Below are positions 56,219 through 63,364 of a stretch of 64,000 nucleotides of DNA, piece by piece. The position numbers and the translations under genes were made by a program. The notes below the pieces were generated by a model, which saw nothing but the letters and a program-made list of their open reading frames with translations, was not told where the DNA came from and searched no databases. Source of the DNA: Streptomyces sp. H39-S7 (lineage in GTDB: Bacteria > Actinomycetota > Actinomycetes > Streptomycetales > Streptomycetaceae); NCBI RefSeq assembly GCF_027158205.1, contig NZ_JAPVLU010000016.1:1-64000 (forward strand), written 5' to 3'. Every line of letters begins with the position of its first letter. Position 1 is the stretch's first letter.

Positions 56219-56989
56219 ATGTCTGCTGGCGAGGGTGGCGGTTCCCAGGTCAAGTCCGCGGTCCGTACGGTCGAACTGCTGGAGTTCTTCGCGGGGCGCC
56301 CCGGTATGCACAGCCTCGCGGCCGTACAGGAATCCGTCGGCTACCCCAAGTCCAGCCTGTACATGCTGCTGCGCACCCTGGTCGAGCTCGGCTGGATCGA
56401 GACCGATGCCACCGGAACGCGCTACGGGATCGGCGTCCGCGCCCTGCTCGTCGGCACGTCGTACATCGACGGTGACGAGGTCGTCGCCGCGGCCCGCCCG
56501 ACCCTCGACCGGCTCTCCGACGACACCAGCGAGACGATCCACCTCGCCCGGCTGGACGGCACCAGCGTCGTCTACCTCGCGACCCGCCAGTCCCAGCACT
56601 ACCTGCGCCCCTTCACCCGGGTCGGCCGCCGTCTGCCGGCCCACTCCACCTCGCTCGGCAAGGCGCTGCTCGCCACGTACTCCGACGAACAGGTCCGCAA
56701 GCTGCTCCCCGAGACCCTGGAACCCCTCACCGAGCACACCCACACCGACCGCGAGAAGCTCATCGAGGAGCTCGCGGTCATCCGGGAGCAGGGCTTCGCC
56801 GTCGACCGCGAGGAGAACACCCTCGGCCTGCGCTGCTTCGGCATCGCCATCCCGTACCGCACCCCGGCCCGGGACGCGGTCAGCTGCTCGGTCCCGGTGG
56901 CCCGCCTCACCCCGGCCCACGAACAGATGATCAAAGACACCCTCTTCGACGCCCGTGACCGCCTGACCCTTGCCACCCGCCGCCTCTGA
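56219..56989 (+). CDS. IclR-family transcriptional regulator
   Basis: A 256-residue regulator. The N-terminal winged HTH (about residues 12-70) reads SAVRTVELLEFF, then SLAAVQESVGYPKSSLYMLLRTL. The C-terminal IclR ligand-binding domain follows, with RLPAHSTSLGKALLA and EENTLGLRCFGIAIPY. AGAGGGG precedes the ATG at 56219. It is divergent from the aldehyde dehydrogenase/DUF1349 unit and probably controls it in response to a small carboxylic acid. Confidence 0.9.
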   Translation: MSAGEGGGSQVKSAVRTVELLEFFAGRPGMHSLAAVQESVGYPKSSLYMLLRTLVELGWIETDATGTRYGIGVRALLVGTSYIDGDEVVAAARPTLDRLSDDTSETIHLARLDGTSVVYLATRQSQHYLRPFTRVGRRLPAHSTSLGKALLATYSDEQVRKLLPETLEPLTEHTHTDREKLIEELAVIREQGFAVDREENTLGLRCFGIAIPYRTPARDAVSCSVPVARLTPAHEQMIKDTLFDARDRLTLATRRL

Positions 56990-57092: not shown

Positions 57093-60000
57093 GTGGCGAA
57101 TCGTCCGACGGACTGGCATGTGCTGGATCTGGACCGGGACCCGGTGCCGGGTGATCCGTACGAGGTGAAGGAACTCGCCCGCAAGCTGGGCGACTTCGCC
57201 GACGACGTCTCGTCGGCCCTGAGATCGGTCAAGGGCCTGAGCGGGAACAACGCGGTCCAGGACTGGGCCGGGCTCGCGGGCGACGCGTACCGGGAGCAGT
57301 TCGGGGATCTGCCCGGCGAGCTGACCAAGCTGGAGAAGTCCTACCGGCTGGCGGGCACCGCGTTGGAGACGTACTGGCCGAAGCTGGAGACCGCGCAGGC
57401 GGATGCCGACCGGGCGCTCGCCCAGGGGCGTACCGCCCGGCACGACCTGGACGCCGCGAAGACCACCCAGGGCAACGCGGACGACTGGGTGAAGCGGGCC
57501 GGAGACAAGTCCAAGGAGTACCAGGCCGATCCGAAGCCGGGCGTGGAGCCGCCGTCCGCCGACGAGGTCCGCACCGCCACCCGCAACGCGCTGGATGCCT
57601 CGAACGCGCAGAAGTCCGCGAACTCCGCGGTCCACGAGGCCCAGCAGCGGCTGGACGCGGCCAAGGAGCTGGCCGCGCAGGCGGCGCATCTGCGGGACAC
57701 GGCCGCGTCGACGGCCGAACACGCGCTGCACGAGGCGTCGGACGCGGGCATCAAGAACAAGCACTGGTGGGAGAAGGCGGTCGACTGGGTCGCGGACCAC
57801 TGGGACGAGATCGTCGCGGTCTGCAAGGTCATCGTCGCCGTCCTCGGCATCATCGTGATGATCATCGGCGGGCCGCTCGCCTGGCTCGTGCTCGCCGCCG
57901 CCCTCGTCGTCCTCGCCGACACACTCGTCAAGTACGCGCAAGGAAAAGCCAGCCTGTGGGACGTCGCGTTCGCCGCCCTGGACTGCATACCGGGAATGAA
58001 GGGCCTGACCACCGCCGGCGGCCTGCTCAAGATGGCCAAGAGCCTGCCCAAGCTGATGAAGGGCATGGGCAGCCATCTCGGTGACATCGCCGGCGCCATG
58101 CGCAAGGGCGCCCAGAGCGTACGGCAGGCAGCGAAGCGCATGGGTGAGCGCCGGTGCAAGAGCGACCCGATCGACGTGGTCACGGGCGAGATGGTGCTGC
58201 CCCAGGTCGATGTCGACCTGCCCGGAATCCTCCCGGTGCTCCTGGAGCGCGCGCACATCTCCTCCTACCGGGCCGGCCGGTGGTTCGGCAAGTCCTGGGC
58301 CTCCACGCTCGACCAACGGCTTGAGCTGGACGGCCAGGGAGTCTGCTTCGTCGCCGACGACGGCATGCTGCTGCAGTACCCGGTGCCGGCCCGCGACGTG
58401 CCCGTGCTGCCCGTCGCCGGACCGCGCTGGCCCCTGGTCTGGGACGGCTCACCGGCCGGGATCGTCACCGTCACGGATCCCGACAGCGGGCGCACCCTGC
58501 ACTTCGACCCCAACGGGCCCACCCTTCCGACCGCCTCCGGGCAACCGGTACAGCTGCCGCTGCGCGCGCTCAGCGACCGCAACGGACAACGAATAGACAT
58601 CGACTACAGCGAGGACGGGGTGCCGACGGGGATCCGCCACGCGGCCTACCGCCTCCGCGTGGCCACCTCCGAGGGCCACATCGCGGCGCTGTACCTGCTC
58701 GACGGGACGCGCGAGGGGTCCGCGGAGCAGGGCGCGGACGGGCACGAGCGCCAGGAGCCGGCAGAGATCCTGCTCGGCCGGTTCGGCTATGAGAACGGCC
58801 ATCTCGCCGAGGTCTTCAACTCATCGGGCCGCGCTGCCCGCTTCGGCTACGACGACCACGGCCGGATCACCGGGTGGGAGGACCGCAAGGGGACCGGCTA
58901 CGCGTACCTGTACGACAGCGAGGGCCGCTGCGTGCGCACCACCGGATCCGACGGTTTCCTCAGCGGCACCTTCGACTACGACACCGACCGCCGGGTCACC
59001 GTCCACACCGACTCGCTGGGTCATACGACCACCTTCCACTACAACGAGGAGCTCCAGGTCACCCTGGAGACCGACGCTCTCGGCCACAGCACTGCGAGCG
59101 AGTGGAACAGCCGTGATCAACTCCTGGCCCACACCGACGCCCTCGGCCGTACCACCCGGTACACCCGCGACGCCGAGGGCAACCTGCTCGCGATCCGGCG
59201 CCCCGACGGCACGTCGACCACCGCGGAGTACAACGCCCTCCGGCTTCCCGAATCGATCACCGAACCGGACGGCAGCCGCTGGCGCTTCGGCTACGACGAA
59301 CGAGGCAACCTCCTCACGGTCACCGACCCGATCGAGGCCACGACCCGCCACACCTACGACGAGCTCGGGCGGGTCCGCGCCGTGACCGACGCGCTGGGAC
59401 ACACCCGGCGCATCGAGGCCGACGCCGCGGGCCGGCCGGTCGTCCTGACGGACGGCAGCGGGTCCTCCACCCGGTACGCGTACGACACGCTGGGCCGGGT
59501 GATCGCCATCACCGACCCCACCGGCGGCGTCACGCGCTTCACCTGGTCCGTCGAGGGCCTGCTGACCTCCCGCACCAGCGCGGCAGGCAACACCGAGCAG
59601 TGGGTGTACGACGGCGAGGGAAACCTGGTGCGGCACATCGAGCCCACCGGTGCCGTCAACCGCTTCGAGAGCACCCACTTCGAGTTGATGACCGCACGGA
59701 CCGCCCCGGACGGCTCCCGTATGGAGTTCGCCTACGACACGGAACTGCGCCTCACCCGGGTCACCAACCAGCAGGGCAGCACCTGGACCTACGAGTACGA
59801 CCCACTGGGCAACCTCCTGCGCGAGACGGACTTCAACGGCCGCGTCCTGTCCTACCGGTACGACGCGGCGGGGCAACTCGTCGAGCGCGTCAACGCCGCG
59901 GGACAGAGCGTCGAGTACCTCCGGGACGCCCTCGGGAACATCGCGGAGCAGAGCTGCGGCGGACTGGTCACGACGTTCCGCTACGACCGGCTCGGCCGGA

Positions 60001-61622
60001 TGGTCGGGGCCTCCAACGCCGACGTGGACGTCGCCTTCGAACTCGACGGAGCGGGCCGCGTCGTCGCCGAGACCTGCAACGGTCGCGTCCTGCGGAACAC
60101 CTATGACCTGCTCGGGCGCCGAACGCGGCGTCTCACCCCGGGCGAGGCCGTCAGCACCTGGGAGTACGACGCCGACCACCGTCCCACCGCACTGCGGGCC
60201 GCCGGGCAGGTGCTCCGCTTCGGCTACGACGCGACCGGCCGGGAAGTCGGCCGGCAACTCGGTTCGACCACTCTCCGCCGGGAGTGGGACGACGACCACC
60301 GTCTCACCGCGCAGACCCTGGCCGACGCGGACAGCCGGGTCACGCTGAGCCGCCGGTACACCTACCGTGCGGACGACTACCTGACGGCCGTCGACGACAG
60401 TGCCGGCGGCAGCCGCGGCTACGACCTGGACCCGGCGGGGCGGGTGACCGCCGTGCACGCCGGCACGTGGACCGAGCGGTACGCGTACGACGCGGCCGGC
60501 AATCTGACCGAGGCGCAGTGGCCCACCGGCCCGGACCCGGAGGATGCCGGTGTGCTGGGGGCTCGTACCTTCACCGCGGCACTGGTCGGCAGGGCGGGCC
60601 GGACGACGTTCGAGCATGACGCCCAGGGGCGCGTCGTGCGTCGCAGCCGCAAACAGCTCTCGGGTGGTTCCCGCACCTGGGAGTACCGCTGGGACGGCGA
60701 GGACCGGCTCACCGACGCGATCACCCCGGACGGCCGGCACTGGCGCTACCTCTACGACCCGCTGGGACGGCGGACGGCCAAGCAGTTGCTGGACGGGGAC
60801 GGCAGGGTGCTCGAACGGACCGACTTCACCTGGGACGGCACCGTGCTCGCCGAGCAGTGGAGTTCGGCGCAAGGCCGCACCCTGACGCTCGACTGGGCGC
60901 CCGACAGCGGACTGCCCGTGGCGCAGACCGATCGCGTTCCGCTCAGCGACGCGTCCCAGGGCGAGTTCGACGAGCGCTTCTACGGCATCGTCACCGACCT
61001 GCTCGGCACCCCGACGGAACTCGTCTCCCCGGACGGGCACATCGGCTGGAGCCTGGAAACCAGCCTCTGGGGAAACCCGCTCCCCACCCCGCGGGGCGAA
61101 ACCGAATGCCCGCTGCGGTTCCCGGGTCAATACCATGACGACGAGACGGGCCTGCACTACAACTATTTCCGTTACTACGATCCGACGGTCGGCCGCTTCC
61201 AGAGCCTCGACCCGCTCGGTCTCGCCGGGGGCCCGAATCCTGGTTGGTACGTCCCGAACCCGACGGCGTGGATCGACCCGTACGGCCTCGCCCTCTGCCG
61301 GCAGAAGCCGCGTATCGAGAACGGGAACGTCAAGGAGGGCTGGATACACATCGACGGCCGCCACATCTCGGGCACCATCCCCAACCACGGCGGCCTGAGC
61401 AGCCTGATGCCTCCCACCACCACACGCGAGCAGGTACTCAAGGCCGCTACGACGGCGGTACGAAAAGGAAATAGGATCTCCGACCCCGCCAAGCGCATGC
61501 AATTGTTCGAGAAGAAGATGACAGTCAACGGTTTCACCGCCAAGTACCATGTCCTGGTCGATTCACACGACGCGAACCGGGTGGTCACCTTCTTCCCCTT
61601 CGGAAAGAGTTTTGGGGCGTAA
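57093..61622 (+). CDS. RHS-repeat polymorphic toxin with T7SS-type N-terminus
   Basis: A 1,509-residue polymorphic toxin. Residues 1-115 form a helical T7SS-signal/WXG-like domain with coiled coils to about 230. A long hydrophobic region follows (about 240-283). A DUF6531-type segment (CKSDPIDVVTGEMVLPQVD) begins near 355. YD/RHS repeats (for example YDELGRVRAVTDALGHTR) span about 570-1,330. The RHS core ends with RYYDPTVGRFQSLDPLGLAG and a conserved DPYGL near 1,395, after which the variable tip starts. The tip of about 110 residues has GWIHIDGRHISGT and a Tyr/His/Asp-rich C-terminal sheet, perhaps a BECR-type RNase. GTG at 57093 has GGGGGAAAC upstream. Confidence 0.93.
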   Translation: MANRPTDWHVLDLDRDPVPGDPYEVKELARKLGDFADDVSSALRSVKGLSGNNAVQDWAGLAGDAYREQFGDLPGELTKLEKSYRLAGTALETYWPKLETAQADADRALAQGRTARHDLDAAKTTQGNADDWVKRAGDKSKEYQADPKPGVEPPSADEVRTATRNALDASNAQKSANSAVHEAQQRLDAAKELAAQAAHLRDTAASTAEHALHEASDAGIKNKHWWEKAVDWVADHWDEIVAVCKVIVAVLGIIVMIIGGPLAWLVLAAALVVLADTLVKYAQGKASLWDVAFAALDCIPGMKGLTTAGGLLKMAKSLPKLMKGMGSHLGDIAGAMRKGAQSVRQAAKRMGERRCKSDPIDVVTGEMVLPQVDVDLPGILPVLLERAHISSYRAGRWFGKSWASTLDQRLELDGQGVCFVADDGMLLQYPVPARDVPVLPVAGPRWPLVWDGSPAGIVTVTDPDSGRTLHFDPNGPTLPTASGQPVQLPLRALSDRNGQRIDIDYSEDGVPTGIRHAAYRLRVATSEGHIAALYLLDGTREGSAEQGADGHERQEPAEILLGRFGYENGHLAEVFNSSGRAARFGYDDHGRITGWEDRKGTGYAYLYDSEGRCVRTTGSDGFLSGTFDYDTDRRVTVHTDSLGHTTTFHYNEELQVTLETDALGHSTASEWNSRDQLLAHTDALGRTTRYTRDAEGNLLAIRRPDGTSTTAEYNALRLPESITEPDGSRWRFGYDERGNLLTVTDPIEATTRHTYDELGRVRAVTDALGHTRRIEADAAGRPVVLTDGSGSSTRYAYDTLGRVIAITDPTGGVTRFTWSVEGLLTSRTSAAGNTEQWVYDGEGNLVRHIEPTGAVNRFESTHFELMTARTAPDGSRMEFAYDTELRLTRVTNQQGSTWTYEYDPLGNLLRETDFNGRVLSYRYDAAGQLVERVNAAGQSVEYLRDALGNIAEQSCGGLVTTFRYDRLGRMVGASNADVDVAFELDGAGRVVAETCNGRVLRNTYDLLGRRTRRLTPGEAVSTWEYDADHRPTALRAAGQVLRFGYDATGREVGRQLGSTTLRREWDDDHRLTAQTLADADSRVTLSRRYTYRADDYLTAVDDSAGGSRGYDLDPAGRVTAVHAGTWTERYAYDAAGNLTEAQWPTGPDPEDAGVLGARTFTAALVGRAGRTTFEHDAQGRVVRRSRKQLSGGSRTWEYRWDGEDRLTDAITPDGRHWRYLYDPLGRRTAKQLLDGDGRVLERTDFTWDGTVLAEQWSSAQGRTLTLDWAPDSGLPVAQTDRVPLSDASQGEFDERFYGIVTDLLGTPTELVSPDGHIGWSLETSLWGNPLPTPRGETECPLRFPGQYHDDETGLHYNYFRYYDPTVGRFQSLDPLGLAGGPNPGWYVPNPTAWIDPYGLALCRQKPRIENGNVKEGWIHIDGRHISGTIPNHGGLSSLMPPTTTREQVLKAATTAVRKGNRISDPAKRMQLFEKKMTVNGFTAKYHVLVDSHDANRVVTFFPFGKSFGA

Positions 61623-62065
61623 TGCGATTCGTGTTCTCCGCCGATGACGTGCCGCCGCCTTCCGGGTTCGATCTCGGGCATCTGGAGGTGGCGGGGAACC
61701 TGGGTTCGTACTCCTCGCGCGGGCATGCCCCGGACCAGGCGATGATGATCTACGTTTCGCTCTCGCTGCTGCTCGACGGTCTGCGGTCGCTCGTCGAGGC
61801 CGGGCGCGGCGGGTACGCGTTCGGCGGGGTCGACTCCTCCTTCTCGCTGAAGTTCTCGCTGACGAAGGACGGGACGCTCACCACCCAGGCCCCCGGCACG
61901 CCGGTCGACCGGTCGGACGTACGGACGGTCGTCGCCGCGGCGTGGGCGGCGGCGGAGGGGTTCGCCGCCGCCCACCTGCCGGGCCTGCCGCCGGACGACG
62001 CCGGGCGGCAGGACCTCGAGATGTCGCTGGCCGCCTTCGCGCCGCTGGTCACGCGGGCCGGGTAG
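61622..62065 (+). CDS. candidate immunity protein for the RHS toxin
   Basis: A 147-residue soluble protein without a recognised family. It starts MRFVFSADDVPPPSGF, has a central strand-rich part (GGVDSSFSLKFSL) and ends in Ala-rich helices with acidic residues. Its ATG shares a base with the toxin stop (TAATG), the strongest sign that it is made with the toxin. Such overlapping small genes behind RHS toxins usually encode immunity proteins that bind and block the C-terminal tip. The immunity role is inferred from position alone. Confidence 0.7.
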   Translation: MRFVFSADDVPPPSGFDLGHLEVAGNLGSYSSRGHAPDQAMMIYVSLSLLLDGLRSLVEAGRGGYAFGGVDSSFSLKFSLTKDGTLTTQAPGTPVDRSDVRTVVAAAWAAAEGFAAAHLPGLPPDDAGRQDLEMSLAAFAPLVTRAG

Positions 62066-62086: not shown

Positions 62087-63364
62087 TCAGACGCGGGTGA
62101 CCTGGCCGCAGCCCTCCCCCGGGCCGACGGGCTTGCTGCGGTCGTAGGGGTCGACGGCGGAGGCGGAGGGAGCCGGGGTGGTGCTGGGGCCGCCGGTCGG
62201 TCCGATGCTCGGGTGCAGGAAGCCGTCGGTGATGTCGCAGGCCGAGTTGCCGAGGTCCTGGCGGTAGTCGGTGATCCAGAGCTTGCCCCTGGTCACCTGC
62301 TTGACCCGGGGGTCGGCGACGTCGAAGTCCAGCACGCGCCGCACGATGGTGCGGGAGACGGCCGACGAGTGGCCGTCGGCGGCGGTCACCCCGTAGACGA
62401 AGGTGACGTCGGCGTGCACGGTGACCGAACCGGACTTGCCCTCCTTGAAGGTGAGCAGACCGCGCGTCTTGACCACGTCGCCGACCATCCGCACCTCGGC
62501 CGGGGCGAACCGGCTGGCCACCGCCAGCGGGTTGTGGTTCTTGTCGGGCTTGCGGAAGGAGGTGTCCCACAGTGAGACGATCTCCGACTCCAGCGGGTCG
62601 ATCAGGCCCAGAGCGATCCGCGGGCGCTCCCCGCGCAGGGTCGCCGGGTTGAGGTTCGTGTCGATCAGGAACTGCTTGGTGCGCTCCAGCGCGTCCTCCA
62701 CCTGCGCGCGTGTCATCCGCCCCACCGCCTTCGCCGGGGGGACGACGATCCCGGTCGCGCCGTCCGCGTACAGGAGGGCCGGCGAGCCGCGGAAGGGCTC
62801 CGCGAGCGTCGGGGTGTCCGCCATCGGGTCGACGGACGGGGCAGCCGTGGGCGGCGCCGTCTCCGGCGGGAGGGCGGGGGGCCGGCCCGAGTCGTCGGAG
62901 CGGTACCCCGTCGTGTCGGCGGAGTCCGCGGAAGCGCCCGAGCCGCTGAAGTCGCCGCGCAGCCAGTCCAGCGCGGTGGACGGATTGAGTACCACCAGGA
63001 GGACCACCACCGCCAGAAGCACGCCCAGCCCTCCGCGCAGGCGCCGCCGGGTCGCGCGGCGTTCCCGGTCCTGCCAGGTGGGCCCGGTGCGCCAGCCCGC
63101 GGGCTCCGCGGGCACCGCCGGCTTCGCGCGGCGCCCCCACCGCTTGCCCTTCCGCTGCTGCAGCGCGGCGAGTTCCGCCTCGCGCCGGAACCGCTCCGTC
63201 ACCATCCGGGCGCGCGCCGAGGGTTCCTTCGGAGCCTGCGCCCTAATGTCCTGTTCGGTGTCCCGGACGAACTTCTCCCATACGTCGTCCGGTATAGCGG
63301 ACTTGTCCCCGGAAGCAGGTGGTTCAGCGGTCACGGAAGGGCCCCCCACAGGCTGTTCTGACAC
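62087..63364 (-). CDS. conserved membrane protein, unknown function
   Basis: A 425-residue bitopic protein. A charged cytoplasmic N-terminus (about 105 residues, rich in Arg/Glu, with REAELAALQQRKGKRW) is followed by one transmembrane helix (about 110-127). An extracytoplasmic part has a Pro/Ser/Thr linker and a mixed alpha/beta domain (ALERTKQFLIDTNLNPATLRG, then VHADVTFVYGVTAADG, then LDFDVADP). Two cysteines near the C-terminus (NSACDITDG, GEGCGQV) may form a disulfide. No catalytic motif seen. GTG at 63364 is the likely start. Confidence 0.78.
   Translation of the reverse strand: MSEQPVGGPSVTAEPPASGDKSAIPDDVWEKFVRDTEQDIRAQAPKEPSARARMVTERFRREAELAALQQRKGKRWGRRAKPAVPAEPAGWRTGPTWQDRERRATRRRLRGGLGVLLAVVVLLVVLNPSTALDWLRGDFSGSGASADSADTTGYRSDDSGRPPALPPETAPPTAAPSVDPMADTPTLAEPFRGSPALLYADGATGIVVPPAKAVGRMTRAQVEDALERTKQFLIDTNLNPATLRGERPRIALGLIDPLESEIVSLWDTSFRKPDKNHNPLAVASRFAPAEVRMVGDVVKTRGLLTFKEGKSGSVTVHADVTFVYGVTAADGHSSAVSRTIVRRVLDFDVADPRVKQVTRGKLWITDYRQDLGNSACDITDGFLHPSIGPTGGPSTTPAPSASAVDPYDRSKPVGPGEGCGQVTRV

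What the first reader, a model, noticed from the sequence alone, without database searches (positions are those of the whole stretch)
61280..62065. Unassigned RHS toxin tip with an overlapping, unrecognised immunity gene
The RHS core ends with a clear DPYGL boundary and about 110 residues follow that I cannot assign to a named toxin family. The GRHISGT motif, the following helix, and a C-terminal sheet ending in VVTFFPF resemble the layout of small BECR-fold RNases, but the match is weak. The next gene starts on the toxin stop codon (TAATG) and has no recognised domain. Toxin and immunity proteins that are both unassigned make this the best candidate in the window for an undescribed effector pair.
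Basis: partly seen in the sequence, partly recalled or inferred. Interest (0 to 1): 0.8.

Follow-up and report, generated by a model that had tools for sequence, protein, structure and literature searches.

The report
Unnamed RHS toxin tip and immunity
A soil actinobacterium carries a large secreted RHS protein whose tip looks like a small RNA-cutting toxin, followed directly by the gene that should protect the producer; the same unnamed pair recurs in at least four other bacterial phyla, so it is a real but uncatalogued weapon and shield of a well-known general kind.

Summary
In detail: the RHS gene (57093-61622) ends DPYGL plus a 110-residue tip, and a 147-aa gene starts on its stop codon (TAATG). 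It is most likely a genuine toxin-immunity pair. Homologous tips occur in Streptomycetaceae, Myxococcota, Lachnospiraceae, a planctomycete and a cyanobacterial plasmid, on unrelated carriers. All 15 intact tips found have a homologue of this 147-aa gene directly downstream; all 9 tip-positive genomes of 395 Streptomycetaceae also have it. At the same site in sister species the RHS core and tip are replaced while this gene survives as an orphan, or the RHS is deleted leaving a 40-codon stub. The tip is most likely a compact BECR-fold RNase: the family consensus reaches the EndoU_bacteria threshold over its C-terminal half only, and the modelled core ranks BECR toxins first among solved folds, at modest scores. 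Two N-terminal histidines and a C-terminal Thr/Ser are conserved. The immunity protein models very confidently as alpha+beta but matches no curated family. Neither half has a Pfam or NCBIfam name. RNase activity, target and neutralisation are inferred, not shown. This is a new member of a known kind (polymorphic toxin/immunity), not a new kind of system.

The parts
57093..61292 (+). RHS delivery part: N-terminal T7SS-type secretion signal/WXG-like domain, DUF6531, RHS/YD repeats, RHS-associated core ending DPYGL (61275-61289)
   Evidence: Pfam PF21725 42.3 bits (cut-off 27), PF20148, PF05593, TIGR03696; EccC of a type VII system elsewhere in the same genome
61293..61619 (+). Toxin tip, 109 residues; conserved H19 (61347-61349), H24 (61362-61364), R96 and T99 (61587-61589), F101-P102
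   Evidence: 16-member family alignment; EndoU_bacteria sub-threshold match; AlphaFold2 core; structural second look
61622..62065 (+). Cognate immunity gene, 147 aa, ATG overlapping the toxin stop codon
   Evidence: Adjacent homologue at all 15 intact tips; AlphaFold2 pLDDT 93.7, pTM 0.89
56219..56989 (+). IclR regulator gene: left flank of the exchange site, shared by sister species (not part of the toxin)
   Evidence: Pfam IclR; synteny with G027, G033, G004
62087..63364 (-). Conserved putative membrane protein: right flank of the exchange site (not part of the toxin)
   Evidence: Synteny with G027, G033, G004 at 83-88% DNA identity

Best explanation
A polymorphic toxin/immunity locus. The RHS protein carries a type VII secretion signal and a YD-repeat shell; [quoted passage not shown] Its N-terminal His pair (GWxHIxxRH) and the Thr/Ser of its last strand (RxxT-x-F-P) are the likely catalytic residues, and a tRNA the likely substrate by analogy with most characterised BECR toxins. 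The 147-aa product of the overlapping gene binds the tip in the producer and blocks it. The tip-immunity cassette moves between carriers and phyla and is exchanged at RHS loci, often leaving the immunity gene behind as an orphan. Shown here: anatomy, conservation, linkage, exchange at the site. Inferred: export route, RNase activity, substrate, blocking mechanism.
For: Linkage: all 15 intact tips are followed by the homologous gene; 9 of 9 tip-positive among 395 family genomes also have it, where 31 of 395 have it at all (hypergeometric 3e-11, ignoring relatedness). Carriers differ: T7SS-RHS, SpvB/TcdB-mid/RHS, HINT, short unassigned proteins. A cyanobacterial conjugative plasmid has the tip broken by an insertion sequence and the immunity homologue kept on its far side. 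Exchange: in G027 the flanks match at 86-90%, core and tip are replaced, this gene is retained at 80% aa; in G033 only a 40-codon stub remains. Purifying selection: dN/dS clearly below 1 in most pairs, lower in tip than immunity. Fold: consensus to EndoU_bacteria 2.1e-5; 8 of 16 members weakly match it; model helix 45-58 plus strands 69-78, 81-90, 96-103; best structural rows CdiA-CT Kp342 Z 6.6 over 89 residues and BrnT Z 5.1. T7SS signal and EccC.
Against: Z values below 8 can reflect a common arrangement, Foldseek alone gave no match at E<=0.001, and the N-terminal 35 residues holding both histidines are modelled at pLDDT about 35-55. The EndoU match does not cover the EndoU catalytic half. 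The consensus used for E=2e-5 is an artificial sequence; real members reach only 0.002. Twenty-two immunity-positive genomes lack the tip. No experiment.
Confidence: 0.72

Rival explanations
1. Real toxin-immunity pair, but the tip is not an RNase; it has a different enzymatic fold and target, and the EndoU/BECR resemblance is only an alpha-then-meander arrangement.
For: No Foldseek hit at E<=0.001; no Pfam match above gathering for any natural member; weak matches also to unrelated models such as MGS.
Against: Co-linear EndoU_bacteria match in 8 of 16 members and at threshold for the consensus; BECR RNase toxins fill most of the top structural rows; invariant His pair and [ST] in the last strand in all 15 complete tips, the commonest BECR configuration (PMC5512222, PMC3482391).
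Confidence: 0.18
2. The tip is a divergent member of an already described BECR clade (Tox-Barnase with motif H, H, [ST], FP, or Ntox35), merely too diverged for Pfam, so the toxin half is not new and only the immunity family is.
For: Residue pattern H, H, [ST], FP listed for Tox-Barnase, and its phyla and carriers (T7SS WXG, TcdB/TcaC, RHS), match what is seen here (PMC3482391); Ntox35 also has two N-terminal His plus C-terminal S/T.
Against: Those clades are tied to barstar or have no listed immunity; the neighbour does not match barstar or any other Pfam immunity family. No Pfam match to ribonuclease or Ntox35 models at E<=10 in 16 members.
Confidence: 0.2
3. The 147-aa gene is not the cognate immunity protein but a passenger of RHS loci (an orphan immunity of another toxin) that happens to sit behind this tip.
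For: Homologues occur in 22 sampled genomes without the tip, some fused to other domains.
Against: It is the immediate neighbour of every intact tip in four phyla on unrelated carriers, often with start and stop codons overlapping; no other gene is shared.
Confidence: 0.05

Closest known systems
EndoU_bacteria toxins (PF14436; e.g. CdiA-CT STECO31, MafB MGI-1 of N. meningitidis)
   Same: C-terminal half aligns co-linearly, ending in the [ST]xFP strand; polymorphic toxin tip with downstream immunity gene
   Different: Only about 106 residues; the N-terminal EndoU subdomain with its His-His-Lys set is absent, and the His pair is the compact HIxxRH instead
CdiA-CT Kp342 / BrnT-type BECR RNase toxins (6CP9, 3U97)
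   Same: Best structural matches of the model; if the last strand aligns without a gap, R96 and T99 fall on R252 and T255 of the Kp342 active site (inference from end points 105/261)
   Different: 6-11% identity, no sequence homology detected; different immunity protein
Tox-Barnase and Ntox35 clades of Zhang et al. 2012 (PMC3482391)
   Same: Two His plus [ST] (and FP for Tox-Barnase); same range of phyla and carriers
   Different: No barstar neighbour; no Pfam match to these families
LPD3 phage polyvalent-protein domain (PF18798)
   Same: Weak sequence (best 4e-4 in a member) and weak fold resemblance of tips
   Different: Function of LPD3 unknown; sub-threshold
Neisserial immunity protein NMB0503 (4Q7O) and CdiI of E. 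cloacae (4NTQ)
   Same: Among the top structural rows for the 147-aa protein (Z 6.7 over 99 and 5.9 over 96 residues)
   Different: 8-9% identity; unrelated PURA scores as high, so membership is not shown
Rhs orphan-immunity loci (Serratia, PMC10539506; Vibrio T6SS arrays, PMC5361080)
   Same: Tip-immunity exchange with retained orphan immunity genes
   Different: Here in actinobacterial, T7SS-type RHS loci

Membership tests
Polymorphic toxin/immunity systems (RHS class) | Conserved delivery part with a clear boundary, variable C-terminal tip | tested here: met
   RHS core to DPYGL; sister species carry other tips on the same N-terminal part
Polymorphic toxin/immunity systems (RHS class) | Cognate immunity gene directly downstream, co-inherited with the tip | tested here: met
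   15 of 15 intact tips
Polymorphic toxin/immunity systems (RHS class) | Tip toxic, neighbour neutralises it | not testable with these tools
   Needs expression assay
EndoU_bacteria (PF14436) | Score above the curated cut-off (25.3 bits) | tested here: not met
   Best natural members E about 0.002-0.005, 17.7 bits for the window tip; only an artificial consensus reaches 25.3
EndoU_bacteria (PF14436) | Two subdomains with His-His-Lys in the N-terminal one | tested here: not met
   Match covers profile 63-128 only; tip has about 30 residues before it
BECR fold RNases | Helix followed by four-stranded meander | tested here: inconclusive
   Helix 45-58, short strand near 60, strands 69-78, 81-90, 96-103, pLDDT 80-89 there; top rows BECR but Z at most 6.6
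BECR fold RNases | His in the N-terminal part and Ser/Thr in the last strand | tested here: met
   H19, H24 in all 16 members; T or S at 99 in all 15 complete ones; this shows the pattern, not catalysis
Ntox50 (YxiD, MafB2) | Second His in the last strand in place of S/T (HxVP) | tested here: not met
   Last strand has T/S; no PF15542 match
Tox-Barnase with barstar | Motif H, H, [ST], FP | tested here: met
   H19, H24, [ST]99, F101-P102 (motif from PMC3482391)
Tox-Barnase with barstar | Barstar-type immunity | tested here: not met
   No Pfam match to barstar in 23 members
WapI-like immunity (PF24716) | Match above cut-off | tested here: not met
   Consensus only, E=0.084, 13.5 of 27 bits
Type VII secretion substrates | T7SS signal domain and a T7SS in the genome | tested here: met
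   PF21725 42.3 bits; EccC E=2e-201; export itself untested

The most novel reading that the evidence does not exclude
The tip founds a separate, minimal EndoU-like BECR clade that kept the C-terminal unit and rebuilt the catalytic His pair as HIxxRH, which would also tie the functionless phage domain LPD3 to the BECR fold; its immunity protein is a new inhibitor family, and the cassette spread across at least five phyla without being catalogued.
Probability: 0.4. Interest if true: 0.55.

Novelty: new member of a known kind. Interest (0 to 1): 0.45.

Why it matters
It would add an unnamed but widely spread toxin family and its matching immunity family to the catalogue of bacterial competition weapons. 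It also gives a clear natural series of tip exchange in actinobacterial T7SS-type RHS loci (intact pair, tip replaced with orphan immunity kept, locus deleted to a stub). If the RNase reading is right, the compact His pair and Thr make a small, testable active site.

Tried and rejected
Pfam, NCBIfam, PADLOC and PHROGs scans of the window proteins and of family members gave no name. Sequence search of solved structures found nothing. No relative in viral contigs or phages. Profile-profile comparison with five local EndoU domains gave probability 49%, too weak to use alone. Foldseek of both models gave no match at E<=0.001. EndoU chains are not among the top structural rows, which excludes nothing. 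The groups of the Corallococcus, Lachnospiraceae and planctomycete genomes were sampled: 6 of 195, 1 of 295 and 1 of 149 genomes have the tip. The Mantel correlation of tip and immunity distances (r 0.76) is confounded by shared ancestry and not used as evidence. In the 395-genome scans only part of the first-look candidates were scored, so tip-negative counts are upper bounds; ten tip-less or tip-damaged immunity regions re-searched at full sensitivity held no tip apart from one fragment.

Full report
Observation. The ORF 57093-61622 is a 1509-residue RHS protein; after DPYGL (61275-61289) 110 residues follow, and the ATG of a 147-aa ORF (61622-62065) overlaps the stop codon. Both have strong codon-position bias. 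The tip is poorer in GC than the rest of the gene, 0.60 against 0.71, as expected for an acquired cassette. The N-terminal part has a T7SS signal domain (PF21725) and a weak WXG100 match, then DUF6531 and YD repeats. The genome has a full EccC ATPase, so export by a type VII system is plausible; it was not tested.

Relatives. A first look at 100 related genomes found the tip in two besides its own, and the downstream gene was next to both. A scan of 84,980 species genomes gave Kitasatospora, Corallococcus, a Lachnospiraceae MAG and a Phycisphaerae MAG, each with a homologue of the 147-aa gene directly downstream. Profile scans added five more Streptomycetaceae (G191, G216, G264, G333, G394) and four more Myxococcota, again all with the neighbour. 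That makes 15 of 15 intact tips, in four phyla. Three damaged cases exist: on a conjugative Oscillatoria plasmid an ISKra4-type element cuts the tip after residue 86 and the immunity homologue lies beyond the element; in G407 a tip fragment is fused in frame to the immunity gene; in G534 a partial tip has no detected immunity nearby. Carriers are T7SS-type RHS proteins, a 2117-aa SpvB/TcdB-mid/RHS protein, HINT proteins and short proteins without known domains. The one thing they share is the tip and the next gene.

Co-occurrence. In 395 Streptomycetaceae genomes the tip is found in 9 and the immunity family in 31; all nine tip genomes are among the 31 (hypergeometric 3e-11, not corrected for relatedness). 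Of the 22 without tip, 13 hold only fragments and nine a full-length copy. At least five full-length orphans lie within 13 kb of an RHS gene (G027, G366, G401, G132, G414) and two are fused to other domains.

Exchange at this site. In three species of the same genus both flanks (IclR gene; putative membrane protein) are conserved at 83-94% DNA identity. In G027 the similarity is 90% to about window 58495, then drops through the core; a different tip and a 111-aa gene follow, and from window 61623 on, the first bases of the immunity gene, it is 86% again. In G033 the RHS is gone and only about 40 codons of the immunity gene stand between the flanks. In G004 another RHS stands there without this immunity gene. 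This is tip replacement and loss caught at one locus.

Selection. In close pairs dN is well below dS for the tip (for example G047/G191: 0.023 against 0.61) and less so for the immunity gene (0.25 against 0.46). Both are maintained; the immunity protein changes faster. Immunity identity falls to 19% where tips still share 59% (Corallococcus/Lachnospiraceae).

What the tip is. The 16-member alignment has invariant R3, P6, G11, G16, W17, H19, I20, R23, H24, G27, R45, G59 and Q70; the last strand reads N-R-x-[IV]-[TS]-x-F-P (N for R in G264) with T or S at position 99 in all 15 complete members. Eight of 16 members weakly match EndoU_bacteria (best 0.002) and the consensus scores 2.1e-5, exactly at the cut-off, over profile 67-128. 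The EndoU N-terminal half, which carries the EndoU histidines, is not matched; local true EndoU domains show it as a separate 60-residue part. The AlphaFold2 model has helix 45-58 and strands 69-78, 81-90, 96-103 at pLDDT 80-89, while residues 14-35, which hold both histidines, are below 50. Foldseek alone gave nothing significant. Re-alignment of its candidates ranked CdiA-CT Kp342 first (Z 6.6, rmsd 3.2, 89 residues), BrnT second (5.1), then another CDI complex chain and CdiA-CT EC3006 (4.7-3.6). These scores are in the range where common arrangements occur, but four of the first six rows are known BECR RNases and a fifth is a CDI complex chain. If the last strand is aligned without a gap, R96 and T99 coincide with R252 and T255, two active-site residues of Kp342 (PMC9086364); that is inference from end points. 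Together: a BECR RNase is the best reading (about 0.75 given a toxin), a tRNA the likeliest substrate by analogy.

What the immunity protein is. The model is very confident (pLDDT 93.7, pTM 0.89): strands 2-7, 18-24, 29-31, helix 43-60, strands 63-68, 75-80, 85-90, 93-99, helices 100-121 and 127-146. No curated family matches; the consensus touches WapI-like at 0.084. Structural rows include the neisserial immunity protein NMB0503 (Z 6.7 over 99 residues) and the CdiI of E. cloacae (5.9), but also unrelated PURA (6.9). That is a hint, not membership.

Known versus new. The system type, overlapping toxin-immunity genes on RHS, tip exchange and orphan immunity are all known. The toxin family and the immunity family have no model in Pfam or NCBIfam. 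The published Tox-Barnase motif (H, H, [ST], FP) and its distribution resemble this family (PMC3482391), so it may be an offshoot of that clade with a non-barstar partner; this could not be settled here. Verdict: a new, well-supported member of a known kind.

Noticed in passing
L016:7293-12106 (G027, same site): The RHS at the same site in a sister species carries another tip (KCLDAADQARHD...FHAPHP) with a 111-aa downstream gene; neither matches Pfam, so a second unassigned pair.
   Followed up: partly
L033:5001-6951 (NC_019730.1, Oscillatoria plasmid): Tip broken by an ISKra4-family insertion, immunity homologue kept on the far side.
   Followed up: partly
L029/L055 (G407): Truncated tip fused in frame to the immunity gene with no stop between them.
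   Followed up: no
L087:5353-6621 and L092:6240-7016: Orphan immunity copies fused to a further N-terminal or C-terminal domain, probably multi-immunity proteins.
   Followed up: no
L077 and L079 (G033, G063): HINT-carried tips matching only the C-terminal half of EndoU_bacteria, with a compact HILxGH motif: perhaps another reduced EndoU-like clade.
   Followed up: partly
tip family members versus PF18798: Weak sequence (4e-4) and fold resemblance of tips to the phage domain LPD3 of unknown function, hinting that LPD3 may be BECR-like.
   Followed up: no
L086:5956-6393 (Streptomyces NBC_01201 plasmid): Plasmid-borne orphan immunity homologue between IS701 and IS5 transposase genes.
   Followed up: no
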